Origin: Thermococcus guaymasensis DSM 11113
GTDB taxonomy: Archaea > Methanobacteriota_B > Thermococci > Thermococcales > Thermococcaceae
Reading direction: 5' to 3'
NCBI RefSeq assembly: GCF_000816105.1
Contig: NZ_CP007140.1
Span: 62,001 to 126,000 of the forward strand
Length of the DNA: 64,000 nt
Of this stretch, positions 6,017 through 46,154 are shown one piece after another. The notes under the pieces were generated by a model. That model ran no database searches. It saw nothing but the letters and a program-made list of their open reading frames with translations, and was not told where the DNA came from. The position numbers were made by a program, and so were the translations under genes. Position 1 is the stretch's first letter; every line of letters starts with the position of its first letter.

Positions 6017-6124
6017 TTCAACCACCGTTGGCCGTTGTTCCCGGCGCTTATAAGGACTGCGGGTTTTAAGCATTACGGTGGGTTATTAAGACGGGAGAAA
6101 AATATGCAGGGTTTGATATATTAC

Positions 6125-6170
6125 ATTTTTCTTTTGAAGGCCTCGCCGTTCACGGCGGGGAGGAGGTCAG
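6125..6170 (+). mobile_element. 46-bp TTAC-anchored hairpin element, copy A
   Basis: The element begins directly after TTAC (6121-6124) with ATTTTTCTT and ends in GGAGGTCAG. In between is the hairpin CTCGCCG-TTCA-CGGCGGG. The innermost pair of that stem is G-C here but C-G in copies B and D, which is a compensated change. It lies between the ends of metG (start side) and ahcY (stop side), reading antisense to both. Three more copies of the same length occur in the window. TTAC-adjacent insertion, a subterminal hairpin and the right-end sequence fit an IS200/IS605-type end without a transposase. Confidence 0.7.
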
Positions 6171-6192
6171 CCAAAGAAGAAAAAGAAGGGGC

Positions 6193-7458
6193 TCATGTCC
6201 CGTGCTCCCAGCTCTCCAGATATTTTTTCTGCTCCTCGGTGAGCTCCTCTATCTTTATCCCCATCGAGGCGAGCTTGATCCGAGCTACCATCTCGTCTAT
6301 CTCCCTCGGGAGCACGTAGACCTTCGGCTCAAGCCTCTCATGGTTGTTCAGTATGTATTCGGCCGCCTTCGCCTGAAGGGCGAAGCTCATGTCCATTATT
6401 TCCGCAGGGTGGCCGTCGGCGGCCGCTAAGTTGACCAGCCTTCCGTCCGCGAGGAGGTAGAGCCTCCTTCCGTCCGCGAGCTTGTACTCCCTGATGTTGG
6501 GCCTCGGCTCGCTTATCTCAACTGCAAGCTCCTCCAGGTCGGGCTTCCATATCTCAACGTCGAAGTGGCCGGCGTTCGCCATTATGACTCCATCCTTCAT
6601 GAGCTCGAAGTGCTCCTTCCTTATGCACTTAATGTTGCCGGTTGAGGTGACGAAAATGTCGCCTACCTTTGCCGCCTCCTTCATGTCCATGACCAAAAAT
6701 CCGTCCATCCTCGCCTCCAAAGCCCTGATCGGATCAACTTCAACGACTATGACAGTCGCACCCAGTCCACGAGCGCGCATCGCTATGCCCCTTCCGCACC
6801 AGCCGTAGCCGACAACGACGACGTTCTTTCCTGCAACGAGCAGGTTGGTTGTCCTTATTATGCCGTCCCACGTTGACTGGCCCGTTCCGTAGCGGTTGTC
6901 GAAGAGGTATTTGGTATAGCTGTCGTTGACTGCTATTATCGGGAACCTAAGAACCCCGTCCTTCTCCATCGCGCGGAGCCTAATCACGCCAGTCGTTGTT
7001 TCCTCGCTCGCGCCCCAGATTTCGTCTATTAACTCAGGCCTTTCGCGGTGGACGGTGCTTATCATGTCCGCCCCGTCGTCTATGATGATGTTGGGTTTTA
7101 TGTCTAAAGCCCTGTGCATGTTCTCGTAGTACTCCTCCCTGCTCTCGCCCCTGATGGCATAGACCTTGACGCCGGCCTTAGCGAGGGCCGCCACAACGTC
7201 GTCCTGCGTCGAGAGAGGATTGCTCGCCGCCGCTGAAACCTCGGCACCGCCAGCCTTGAGGGTCAGGAGCAGAAAAGCTGTCTTCATCTCAAGGTGGAGC
7301 GTCGTCGCAATCCTGACGCCCTTGAAGGGCTTCTCCCTCTCGAACTCCTTCCTTATCGTCTGGAGGACGGGCATGAAGCGCGAGACCCAGTCAATCTTCT
7401 TCTCCCCGCTCGGAGCGAGGCTCAGGTCTTTAACGCAGTAGTCCTTCGTGCAGTCCAT
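6193..7458 (-). CDS. ahcY: Adenosylhomocysteinase (S-adenosylhomocysteine hydrolase)
   Basis: The 421-residue cytosolic NAD-dependent enzyme splits S-adenosylhomocysteine into adenosine and homocysteine and so relieves product inhibition of SAM methylases. The substrate domain shows [15 protein letters not shown] and [10 protein letters not shown]. The NAD-binding Rossmann fold is at [20 protein letters not shown] near residue 215. The catalytic region includes [14 protein letters not shown] near residue 185 and [10 protein letters not shown] near residue 295. The C-terminus is the archaeal short form. ATG at 7458 was preferred over an upstream GTG because GGTGGT precedes it. Genome context gives no operon partner. 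Confidence 0.97.
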
Positions 7459-20125: not shown

Positions 20126-20806
20126 ATGTTTAGGAGGCTGAAGAAGAGGGGTGCGGTTGGTATTGGAACCCTGATTGTGTTTATAGCCATGGTTCTAGTG
20201 GCTGCAGTAGCTGCAGCAGTCCTCATCAACACGAGCGGCTACCTGCAGCAGAAGGCTTCCAGCACGGGCAGGGAGACCACCCAGGAAGTCGCCAGCGGAA
20301 TACAGGTTGAAAGAATAGTCGGTAAGACCGATGCCAACAAGGAATACATTCAGCAGCTCGCCATCTACGTCAGTCCGAACGCCGGAAGCTCCGGAATCGA
20401 CCTCAGGAAGACCAAGATAATCATCAACAACGGTAGCACTCAGGCGGTGTTGAACTATGAGAGCAATGCATACACTGGAAAAGATGGCATTGCCGGAGGA
20501 ATCTTCGACACAGGAAAAACCGCATGGAGCGGACTTAATGACCCAACCGACTATGGTATCATAGTCGTCCAGGATGCAGACAACAGCGTCCAGTCGGACT
20601 ATCCAACCCTCAACAAGGGCGACCTTGTCATACTGACGTTCTACGTTGGCGGCAGTGTCGGCGGCGAGAACGCAATCTTTGGCAATAACGGCATACCGCC
20701 GAGGACCAAGATTACCGGCAAGATTGTCCCAGAGTTCGGTGCTCCGGGCGTCATCGAGTTCACCACCCCGACCAGCTACACGGAGGAGATTGTTGAGCTT
20801 CAGTGA
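20126..20806 (+). CDS. flaB2: Archaellin FlaB2
   Basis: The 226-residue archaellin has leader MFRRLKKRG and mature start [20 protein letters not shown]. It shares long stretches with FlaB1, including [18 protein letters not shown], and ends IPEFGAPG-type ([20 protein letters not shown]). ATG 20126 is set by GGGAGGTGA eight bases upstream; a GTG at 20120 is too close. The spacer before it is almost identical to that before flaB3, so gene plus spacer were duplicated together. In archaella of this group one subunit dominates and others are minor, but which is which cannot be told here. Confidence 0.95.
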
Positions 20807-41069: not shown

Positions 41070-41174
41070 TTTAATCACCACATTCATGATTATTTGAAGC
41101 GTTAAAATCTTTTCTTTTGATTTTAACATGTCAATCAACGAAACTGGGGCTAATTACTTAATCACGGGTTTTAC

Positions 41175-41220
41175 ATTTTTCTTCTGAAAGCCTCGCCCTT
41201 TAGGGCGGGAAGGAGGTCAG
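41175..41220 (+). mobile_element. 46-bp TTAC-anchored hairpin element, copy B
   Basis: The copy starts after TTAC (41171-41174), folds CTCGCCC-TTTA-GGGCGGG, and ends GGAGGTCAG at 41220. It lies in the spacer between the divergent purB and alba genes, about 30 bases ahead of the alba TATA box and in the direction of alba. It differs from copy D by two bases outside the stem. Confidence 0.7.
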
Positions 41221-41251
41221 ACTTTGGAACCAGAACAAAGAAAGAACCGAA

Positions 41252-41262
41252 AAGTATTTAAC
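41252..41262 (+). promoter_or_regulatory. TATA box of alba
   Basis: GTATTTAACC at about 41251-41260 is a strong archaeal TATA element. The predicted transcription start is near 41283, giving a leader of about 27 bases with GGAGGTG before ATG 41310. Strong expression is expected for this chromatin protein. Confidence 0.55.
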
Positions 41263-41309
41263 CCTATGCCCGCGATAGGCTAACGACAAAACTTCCGGAG
41301 GTGCCAGAA

Positions 41310-43527: not shown

Positions 43528-44601
43528 GTGGAGATAAGGTACAGGCCCGAGGAACTCACGAGGCTCCCGAGGAGCGTTCGCTACGAGACCGGAAAGGTCA
43601 TCATGATCGACCAGACGCTTTTGCCAGGGGAGTTCAAAACGATCGAGTTGAGGACCGTCGAGGAAGTCGCCGAAGCGATAGTAACAATGAAGGTGCGCGG
43701 TGCGCCGGCGATTGGCGCTTCAGCCGCTTTCGGCTTAGCTCTCTACGCGGACACGACCAAGGCAAAGACCAAGGATGAGTTCATGGACGGCTTTTACAGG
43801 GCATACGAGACCCTGAAGAATACGAGGCCAACCGCCGTGAACCTCTTCTGGGCCCTCAACAGGATTAAGAAGCTCGTCGAGGAGAACCTTGAGAGCCCGC
43901 TCGACGAGATAAAGCGCATGATTGTGGCAGAGGCCCAGAAGATAGCCGACGAGGACGTTGAGGCGAACCTCAGGATGGGCCACTACGGTGCCGAGGCTTT
44001 GCCCGAAGGCAACGTCCTCACCCACTGCAACGCCGGAAGCCTGGCCACCGTCCAGCTCGGAACTGTTGGAGCGGTTCTCAGGGTGATGCACCGCGACGGG
44101 ACGCTCAAGCTCCTCTGGGTGGACGAGACGAGACCCGTTCTCCAGGGTGCGAGGCTCTCCGCCTGGGAGTACCACTACGACGGCATCCCCCTCAAGCTGA
44201 TAACCGACAACATGGCCGGCTTCGTGATGCAGCAGGGGAAGGTTGACGCGATTATAGTCGGAGCTGACAGGATAGTGGCCAACGGCGACTTCGCCAACAA
44301 GATAGGCACCTATACCTTGGCCGTTCTCGCCAAGGAGCACGGGATACCGTTCTTCACCGTTGCCCCGCTCTCGACGATAGACCTCTCACTAAAAAGCGGT
44401 AAGGAGATACCGATTGAGGAGAGAAAGCCCGAGGAAGTCCTAACTTGCGGCGGCTGCAGGATAGCGCCGGACGTTGACGTCTACAACCCCGCCTTCGACG
44501 TGACGCCGCACAGGTACCTGACCGGCATAATAACGGACAGGGGCGTCGTTTACCCACCGTTTGAGAGGAATTTGAAGAGGCTGTTCAAGGAAGAACCGTG
44601 A
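43528..44601 (+). CDS. mtnA: Methylthioribose-1-phosphate isomerase (eIF2B-like family)
   Basis: The 357-residue protein converts 5-methylthioribose 1-phosphate to the ribulose form in methionine salvage. Motifs are MKVRGAPAIGASAAFGLAL near residue 55, LTHCNAGSLATVQLGTVGAV near residue 165 with the catalytic Cys, VDETRPVLQGARLSAWE, and GADRIVANGDFANKIGTYTL near residue 240 with the catalytic Asp. Thermococcales also have a ribose-1,5-bisphosphate isomerase of the same family, but the MtnA motifs fit better. GTG 43528 was chosen because GGGGTGG is properly placed; nearby GTG codons at 43519 and 43522 lie inside that site. Confidence 0.88.
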   Translation: MEIRYRPEELTRLPRSVRYETGKVIMIDQTLLPGEFKTIELRTVEEVAEAIVTMKVRGAPAIGASAAFGLALYADTTKAKTKDEFMDGFYRAYETLKNTRPTAVNLFWALNRIKKLVEENLESPLDEIKRMIVAEAQKIADEDVEANLRMGHYGAEALPEGNVLTHCNAGSLATVQLGTVGAVLRVMHRDGTLKLLWVDETRPVLQGARLSAWEYHYDGIPLKLITDNMAGFVMQQGKVDAIIVGADRIVANGDFANKIGTYTLAVLAKEHGIPFFTVAPLSTIDLSLKSGKEIPIEERKPEEVLTCGGCRIAPDVDVYNPAFDVTPHRYLTGIITDRGVVYPPFERNLKRLFKEEP

Positions 44602-44625
44602 AACCTTCTTTTTCCGCAGCATTTT

Positions 44626-45008
44626 TCAATCTTTCATCAAATGTGACAAAATCGAGGCCTCATCCTTGACTCTCAGAGCAGATGCGAGCTGTAGGGAATC
44701 AAGTGTTTTAAGCCCGTGTTTAAGAACAAGAGATGTCGCGAGGCTAACGGTTTCGCTTGAGATTGGGACTACTACATAGTTTTCGAGGTCAGAGTAGAAC
44801 CGTTCAAGAACCCATTCAAGCTTACGTTTTGTGAGTTCACCACTGAGAAATCGTCTGTTTAATGCCGAGCTGACCTCCTTCCCGCCGTGAAGGGCGAGGC
44901 TTGAAAAAGAAAAATGTAATTTTCCATGAGTTCGTTGACGATGGAGCTACCCCGCTCAATGTGGTAATGTTTCACAAGTGCACTGGTATCAAAAAACGCT
45001 ACCTCCAC
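44626..45008 (-). pseudogene. vapC: VapC-type PIN toxin, interrupted by a 46-bp element
   Basis: From GTG 45008 the frame reads VEVAFFDTSALVKHYHIERG, the normal PIN start with its first acidic residue, up to NELMENY. There copy C of the hairpin element begins and the frame stops. In another frame after the element the C-terminal half is intact (SALNRRFLSGELTKRKLEWV, LKTLDSLQLASALRVKDEAS). About a dozen codons are also missing at the site, so insertion was accompanied or followed by deletion. The RNase toxin should be dead. It overlaps the antitoxin gene by 10 bases, as in normal vapBC pairs. Confidence 0.85.
44870..44915 (-). mobile_element. 46-bp TTAC-anchored hairpin element, copy C (inside vapC)
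   Basis: On the minus strand the element follows TTAC (44919-44916), begins ATTTTTCTT and ends GGAGGTCAG. The stem is CTCGCCC-TTCA-CGGCGGG, with its innermost pair mismatched. It interrupts the PIN-domain coding sequence, direct evidence that these elements move into genes. Confidence 0.78.
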
Positions 45009-45211
45009 TCCTCATCCCTCTCCTTGAGGATGTCATCGCTAAGCTCACCGTCTATGCCCCTCAGAATACGCCTGACCTCCTCAATAGGCGGGGCTTTTTT
45101 AGAAACTTTTTGAGATGAGGATAGGTTATCATCAGCTGAACGCGCCTCGCTGAGATTGGCATGGTACCACCGTTTAAGATTTGAAGGATTGACCAATAAA
45201 ACGTTTTCCAT
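44999..45211 (-). CDS. vapB: VapB-like antitoxin
   Basis: The 70-residue product lies directly upstream of and overlaps vapC, in the usual antitoxin-first order. Its C-terminal part (KAPPIEEVRRILRGIDGELS then DDILKERDEEWR) looks like the toxin-binding tail of VapB proteins. The N-terminal part (MENVLLVNPSNLKRWYHANL) is not a recognised DNA-binding fold and may be altered. No good ribosome site is seen before ATG 45211, and a longer start at 45265 exists. With the toxin broken it probably has no partner. Confidence 0.55.
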   Translation of the reverse strand: MENVLLVNPSNLKRWYHANLSEARSADDNLSSSQKVSKKAPPIEEVRRILRGIDGELSDDILKERDEEWR

Positions 45212-45488
45212 GCTTTCTTTGGAATACCTTCCTGAGCCCGTCAAGGAATGATTTCCTATCCTCAACGGCCTCCTCCACGAGAACGGTCTCTATCTCCCCG
45301 AGCCTCTCTTCTATGGCCGGCAGGAGAAGGCCTAAAAGCTCAAGGGGCTCCAGACAGGGACAGTCGAGAGAGTAGTCGATTGGCTCTCCGTCTGGAAACT
45401 CCACTCTAAGCGATATTCCCTTTTTGCTCTTCTTAACTTCAAAACGGGCAGTCCCTTCCTTTCCCACCACTTTTCCCCTGACGAGCAT
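45174..45488 (-). CDS. Hypothetical protein
   Basis: The 104-residue product starts MLVRGKVVGKEGTARFEVKK and has a beta-rich first half with DYSLDCPCLEPLELLGLLLP, containing a C-x-C, and a helical second half ending in a basic segment. I do not recognise it. Codon use and start (ATG 45488) look like a real gene, but its 3' end overlaps the vapB frame by 38 bases, suggesting a rearranged end. It lies in the zone of broken genes. Confidence 0.5.
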   Translation of the reverse strand: MLVRGKVVGKEGTARFEVKKSKKGISLRVEFPDGEPIDYSLDCPCLEPLELLGLLLPAIEERLGEIETVLVEEAVEDRKSFLDGLRKVFQRKHGKRFIGQSFKS

Positions 45489-45550
45489 CGGAGATAGTAA
45501 AGAAGGACAGCTTAAAGGCCTTTTTTGAACGGGAGGTTGAAAACAAAAAG

Positions 45551-45696
45551 TTAGAGCTCCTTTTCGAGGATGAAGGCCCTTTCGCGGTAGCCTCTCCTCC
45601 TGTACCATTCGAGTGCCGGATTGTCGAGCTCAACGCGGAGTGAGACCTTCCTCCTTCCTCCCCCACCCACTCCTCGGCCCGTTGGAGGAGGGCACT
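45551..45696 (-). pseudogene. GNAT acetyltransferase, C-terminal fragment
   Basis: The fragment begins with SALLQRAEEWVGEEGGR, the acetyl-CoA-binding motif region. After a frame change it continues KVSLRVELDNPALEWYRRRG and YRERAFILEKEL to a stop at 45551. This is the last third of a RimI-like N-acetyltransferase. It is joined at its start to a glycerate kinase fragment in the same frame. No N-terminal half is present nearby. Confidence 0.75.
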
Positions 45697-46130
45697 TCCG
45701 CCGCCGGAGATGAGGACGAGGAGGACGTTGTTCTCCCCAACCTTCCCGGTCAGCTCGAGGCCGAGCTTTCCGCCCCGGAGGGAGTTCTCATCTGGAACTG
45801 GGTGCCCCGCCTCGATGACCTTCAATCTTTCCGTTCTCAGGCAGTCCTCTGCGTAGCCGTACTTTGTAATGATAACTCCCTCTTCAATCTGCTTCCCGAT
45901 GATGTCAACGACGGCCCTCGCCATGGAGCAGGCGGCCTTGCCGAAAGCCAATACGTAGAACCTCTCACCAGAAACGACCATTTTGTTCTCCTTAATCTGT
46001 AAGGTTCCTTTTCACCGCGAGCTGACCTCCTTCCCGCCCTGAAGGGCGAGGCTTTCAAAAGAAAAATGTAAGGATCCGCGCTTTCGATGGCAACGTTCAT
46101 GATCTCCAGTGCAGCAGTTCTGGCGTCCAT
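45685..46130 (-). pseudogene. Glycerate 2-kinase (GckA-type), N-terminal fragment, interrupted
   Basis: From ATG 46130 the frame reads MDARTAALEIMNVAIESADP and Y, then meets element copy D. Beyond the element, LAVKRNL continues the kinase as if the element had been removed, a one-base insertion shifts frame, and IKENKMVVSGERF leads to YVLAFGKAACSMARAVVDII and LISGGGSAL. There the kinase ends and an acetyltransferase fragment begins. About three quarters of the roughly 440-residue kinase are lost. The gene lies next to the TrmB-controlled sugar cluster, so it may once have served it. Confidence 0.85.
46022..46067 (-). mobile_element. 46-bp TTAC-anchored hairpin element, copy D (inside glycerate kinase)
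   Basis: The element follows TTAC (46071-46068) on the minus strand, starts ATTTTTCTT, contains the perfect stem CTCGCCC-TTCA-GGGCGGG with one T-G pair, and ends GGAGGTCAG. Removing exactly these 46 bases rejoins ADPY with LAVKRNL, a normal glycerate kinase sequence, without a target-site duplication. This defines the element ends precisely. Confidence 0.82.
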
Positions 46131-46154
46131 CTCACCTCTCCCAGTGGAGAGAGT

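What the first reader, a model, noticed from the sequence alone, without database searches (positions are those of the whole stretch)
44870..46067. Four 46-bp hairpin elements anchored at TTAC, two of them inside broken genes
Copies at 6125-6170 (+), 41175-41220 (+), 44870-44915 (-) and 46022-46067 (-) all have exactly 46 bases. All are preceded by TTAC, begin ATTTTTCTT, contain a GC hairpin and end GGAGGTCAG. The innermost stem pair changes from C-G to G-C in copy A, a compensated change that argues for selection on structure. Copy D interrupts a glycerate kinase gene and copy C a vapC gene. Fixed 3'-of-TTAC insertion, no target duplication, a subterminal hairpin and a TCAG right end match the behaviour of IS200/IS605-type single-strand transposition (established for IS608, target TTAC). 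No TnpA or TnpB is present in the window, so they would move in trans, or survive as orphan ends.
Basis: partly seen in the sequence, partly recalled or inferred. Interest (0 to 1): 0.85.

Follow-up and report, generated by a model that had tools for sequence, protein, structure and literature searches.

The report
Collapsed jumping-gene ends in Thermococcus
The four 46-base hairpins are what is left when an IS200/IS605-type jumping gene carrying tnpB loses its middle, so that its left and right ends fuse through their shared hairpin; such stubs are scattered across the genus, and the same kind was described in a salt-loving archaeon in 2011.

Summary
The window has four 46-bp copies, each 3' of TTAC; the genome (Thermococcus-like, 1.92 Mb) has about 26. 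Across 61 genomes of the genus a 45-base pattern finds about 146 in 33 genomes (reversed-pattern control 0).

The left half of each 46-mer equals the left end, and the right half the right end, of 1.45-kb tnpB elements in the same genome and of tnpA+tnpB elements in sister species. Both ends carry the same hairpin as a direct repeat, so the 46-mer is a fusion across it. Solos carry left-end-type or right-end-type loops, implying many separate fusions. Where one genome has a solo, a sister has a 1460-bp tnpB element.

Insertion follows the IS608 mode. Empty sites at copy D and elsewhere show an exact 46-bp insertion after TTAC without duplication. Target base -3 and guide base +13 covary as T:A or G:C (p about 1e-12). 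The genome has no TnpA, so the copies now look inert.

'Terminal-only PATEs' of Haloquadratum are the same kind, so this is a new member of a known kind. Unexplained: some solos have lost 38-935 bp next to the left end, bounded by target motifs.

The parts
6125..6170 (+). Copy A, 46-bp solo element (TTAC at 6121-6124), between the metG-like and ahcY-like genes; loop GTTCAC
   Evidence: left flank found in G025, right flank elsewhere there
41175..41220 (+). Copy B, 46-bp solo element (TTAC at 41171-41174) between the purB-like and Alba-like genes; loop CTTTAG
   Evidence: absent at the orthologous intergenic region of ten relatives; joined flanks align across the site
44870..44915 (-). Copy C, 46-bp solo element (TTAC on the minus strand at 44919-44916) in a PIN/vapC-like gene; guide TTTCAAG; chimeric loop CTTCAC; replaces 38 bp of the gene
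46022..46067 (-). Copy D, 46-bp solo element (TTAC on the minus strand at 46071-46068) in a glycerate kinase-like gene; exact 46-bp insertion
44588..45011 (-). vapC-like (PIN) pseudogene interrupted by copy C, second frameshift near 44650
   Evidence: tblastn; Pfam PF01850 on the intact orthologue
45655..46154 (-). Remnant of a glycerate kinase-like gene (residues 1-156 of 455), interrupted by copy D
   Evidence: tblastn; Pfam PF13660 and PF05161 on the intact orthologue

Best explanation
The 46-mers are 'solo ends' of an IS200/IS605-type element. A tnpB element of about 1.45 kb, with a tnpA+tnpB autonomous relative elsewhere in the genus, inserted 3' of TTAC or TTGAC through pairing of a short guide at the foot of its left hairpin with the target (supported by comparison and covariation). 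The left and right ends both contain the hairpin CCTCGCCCTTTAGGGCGGGGA as a direct repeat about 1.4 kb apart. Recombination or replication slippage between the repeats deletes the tnpB core and leaves left-end arm, one hairpin, and right-end arm = 46 bp (the fusion is shown; the exact mechanism is inferred). Without TnpA in the genome the stubs stay where they are, are inherited vertically and decay.
For: Full elements in the same genome have LE = TTAC+ATTTTTCTTTTGAAAGCCTCGCC..GGCGGGGATGCAGTAAAC and RE = GTTGGAACCCTCGCC..GGGCGGGGAGGAGGTCAG. All 77 solos have an RE-like right arm and 76 of 77 an LE-like left arm (the search required both, so the loops are the independent part). Loop CTTCAG is seen in 9/40 REs, 0/26 LEs and 26/77 solos, while GTTCAC is LE-type (11/26 LEs) and in 7 solos: different crossover points, so many events. 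At one locus G022 has a 1460-bp element with an open tnpB frame, G004 a 46-bp solo, G028 a decayed solo. Empty alleles with an exact 46-bp difference at D (G025, G034), 689781, 995071, 1346138 and for solos of G004 and G001. Target -3/guide +13 covariation: 85 T:A and 18 G:C against 9 mixed, p 5e-13; 6e-12 on unique sequences; highest of 190 column pairs. Autonomous tnpA+tnpB element with the same ends in G004. Solos at the same site in G004/G022 and G049/G053. tnpB-less intermediates of about 0.35-0.55 kb.
Against: Only one locus shows full versus solo, and the right junctions there differ by 5 bp (ATTAC), so two insertions at neighbouring TTAC sites are possible. No second strain of the same species was available. 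Some genomes (G008) have several near-identical solos but no TnpB or TnpA hit, which could also mean spread of the 46-mer itself.
Confidence: 0.87

Rival explanations
1. The 46-mer is itself a mobile non-autonomous unit (a minimal MITE) moved in trans by a TnpA, and spread as such.
For: Exact 46-bp insertions at empty sites; near-identical copies in G008 without TnpB; 15 of 61 genomes have TnpA; a 52-bp terminal-only element in Haloquadratum was suspected to move (PMC3119063).
Against: Solos show different crossover points; the own genome has no TnpA; a single hairpin replaces the two that IS608-type synapsis uses (PMC5934647); a full element sits where a sister has a solo.
Confidence: 0.2
2. 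A fixed small RNA gene or riboregulator conserved as a hairpin.
For: Conserved hairpin and GGAGG motif.
Against: Sites are empty in relatives; no Rfam match in the window apart from 5S; copies lie in genes and in both orientations.
Confidence: 0.01
3. REP-like elements maintained by a RAYT-type transposase.
For: Short hairpin, mostly intergenic, derived from Y1-transposon biology.
Against: No Y1 protein in the genome, only about 26 copies, no GTAG/CGTC tag at the end; the arms equal LE and RE of tnpB elements.
Confidence: 0.03

Closest known systems
Terminal-only PATEs of Haloquadratum walsbyi (HqIRS46, ISHwa23 core deletions; PMC3119063)
   Same: 52-bp element made from a 1500-bp tnpB transposon by repeat-mediated deletion between near-terminal palindromes (19-22-bp direct repeat); no target duplication; target oligonucleotide at the 5' side
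   Different: Other order of archaea and other sequence; 46 bp; here solos occur genus-wide, outnumber full elements in the own genome, and guide/target covariation was tested
IS608 / IS200-IS605 family ends (PMC5934647)
   Same: Insertion 3' of TTAC, no duplication, guide at the 5' foot of the hairpin pairing with target (A+16:T-3 there; +13:-3 here), subterminal hairpin at both ends
   Different: The 46-mer has one hairpin and no gene
Free-standing IS605 stem-loops in Borrelia plasmids (PMC2775950)
   Same: Isolated IS605-derived stem-loops, mobility unknown
   Different: There single-end remnants; here both ends fused
Solo LTRs (own knowledge)
   Same: Recombination between direct repeats at both ends leaves one repeat
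   Different: The repeat is a 21-bp hairpin, not an LTR

Membership tests
Terminal-only PATE (IS605 core-deletion derivative) | No gene; consists of the fused terminal sequences of an IS605-type element | tested here: met
Terminal-only PATE (IS605 core-deletion derivative) | Core deletion between direct repeats that are the near-terminal palindromes | tested here: met
   Shared hairpin in LE and RE; full versus solo at one site, with a 5-bp right-junction difference
Terminal-only PATE (IS605 core-deletion derivative) | No target duplication | tested here: met
IS200/IS605 (autonomous member) | Encodes a Y1 HUH TnpA | tested here: not met
   46 bp has no gene; no PF01797 in the genome. Relatives with the same ends do encode it
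IS200/IS605 (autonomous member) | Insertion 3' of a fixed short target | tested here: met
IS200/IS605 (autonomous member) | Guide at the foot of the hairpin pairs with the target | tested here: met
   Covariation -3/+13; pairing itself not assayed
IS200/IS605 (autonomous member) | Single-stranded circular intermediate | not testable with these tools
   needs biochemistry
REP/RAYT | Y1 RAYT gene in the genome | tested here: not met
Fixed RNA gene | Conserved at the same loci across species | tested here: not met
   a few shared sites between close sisters only

The most novel reading that the evidence does not exclude
The 46-mer, or its left end alone, can still be acted on by TnpA: it would be among the smallest IS200/IS605-type mobile units, and one-ended reactions of its left end with a second nearby target would explain the flank deletions of 38, 484 and 935 bp that end exactly at target motifs.
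Probability: 0.2. Interest if true: 0.65.

Novelty: new member of a known kind. Interest (0 to 1): 0.42.

Why it matters
It explains a dispersed repeat of Thermococcus genomes that breaks genes, shows that tnpB elements decay to solo ends there as in haloarchaea, and gives natural covariation evidence for IS608-like guide-target pairing in an archaeal family. The target-bounded flank deletions are an open, testable point.

Tried and rejected
Most G025 comparisons of intergenic solos were too diverged to place the junction. A candidate full-versus-solo pair (G000 L249 / G024 L293) was dropped: positions and left-end types differ. The 484-bp difference at 20591 in G050 and G036 first looked like a longer element; it is the rest of the host gene, missing in the own genome. 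RNA gene and REP readings were rejected. Rfam has no match for the tnpB-element ends.

Full report
Observation. The four copies are exact at the stated coordinates, each 3' of TTAC, and specific to these places in the window. The genome has about 40 matches to the 46-mer: about 26 solos, and the ends of longer elements. A solo pattern with up to 3 mismatches hits 33 of 61 genomes of the genus, about 146 copies, with none for the reversed pattern. The genus is taken as Thermococcus from the record titles of matching loci.

What it is. The genome holds about nine tnpB loci and no tnpA. Elements with both ends run about 1.45 kb. Their left end starts TTAC+ATTTTTCTTTTGAAAG, then the hairpin, then GATGCAGTAAAC; their right end is GTTGGAACC, the same hairpin, GAGGAGGTCAG. 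The 46-mer is the left end up to the hairpin followed by the right end from the hairpin. Four elements of roughly 0.35-0.55 kb with both ends and no tnpB domain hit are intermediates (the right end of one, at 621675, was placed only roughly). In G004 a tnpA+tnpB element has the same ends. Because solos were found by patterns that ask for both arms, the arm classification alone is partly circular; the loops are not. Right-end-type loops (CTTCAG) and left-end-type loops (GTTCAC) both occur in solos, so crossovers fell at different points of the hairpin and fusions happened repeatedly.

Insertion and mode. Orthologues of copy D in G025 and G034 read CCTTAC|CTCGCGG where the window has CCTTAC|46 bp|CTCGCGG. 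Gapless empty sites are also seen for 689781 and 995071, 1346138 in G036 and for solos of G004 and G001. None has a target duplication. In 121 left ends and solos the target base at -3 and the element base at +13 covary as T:A or G:C (103 against 9 of the four main combinations; Fisher p 5e-13, 6e-12 on unique sequences). This pair has the highest mutual information of 190 tested. Rows are related by descent and the match list was cut short, so the p-value is not exact, but the trend holds without the own genome. It is the counterpart of the A+16:T-3 pair in the IS608 target complex (PMC5934647).

Collapse. At one locus G022 carries a 1460-bp element with an open tnpB frame, G004 a 46-bp solo and G028 a decayed solo. 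G004 has an extra ATTAC after the right end, so a second insertion at a neighbouring TTAC cannot be excluded. A full element is kept at one site in both G000 and G024, and solos are shared at the same site by G004/G022 and G049/G053: stubs and full copies are inherited vertically.

Unexplained. At several solos the right flank is preceded in relatives by a target-like motif while the left flank comes from further away. In copy C 38 bp between TTAC and ATGAC are missing; at 20591, 484 bp between TAC sites; at 1380274, 935 bp between a TTGAC site and GATGAC; G046 and G049 share a right flank but not the left. Recombination between two neighbouring copies, or a one-ended reaction of the left end, would each give this. 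Copy C's guide base (C) fits the lost right-side target (G at -3) and not its present TTAC, which speaks against plain exchange with a copy that had inserted at the TTAC.

Comparison. The 2011 comparison of two Haloquadratum strains described the same kind of event: 1500-bp tnpB transposons reduced to 52-bp terminal-only PATEs by deletion between the near-terminal palindromes (PMC3119063). This find is therefore a new member of a known kind. What is added is its spread through Thermococcus, the guide/target covariation, and the target-bounded flank losses.

Noticed in passing
window 41175-41220 and 41248-41270: Copy B lies just upstream of a strongly conserved promoter-like block of the Alba-like gene (ccgaaaagtatttaacc...), and may change its upstream region.
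   Followed up: partly
window 6060-6240: Copy A lies between metG-like and ahcY-like genes; in G024 the two flanks are at different loci and in G025 about 7.5 kb apart, so it marks a synteny break. G024 has its own solo right behind ahcY.
   Followed up: partly
L275 (G004) versus L349 (G022): Two solos in opposite orientation in G004 sit at the ends of what looks like an inversion relative to G022.
   Followed up: partly
L135:7372-7416: A solo on a contig binned as a Thermoplasmata archaeon (QMTU01000019.1): mis-binning or transfer.
   Followed up: no
L283 (G049): A solo-like copy with a right-end-type left foot (CTTGGAACCCTCGCC).
   Followed up: no
L277 (G004): HgcC RNA (RF00062) and the sR1 and sR60 snoRNA families match on the same 5-kb locus as the tnpA+tnpB element.
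   Followed up: no
L274 (G004), L338 (G022): Five extra bases (ATTAC) after the solo's right end compared with the full element in G022.
   Followed up: partly
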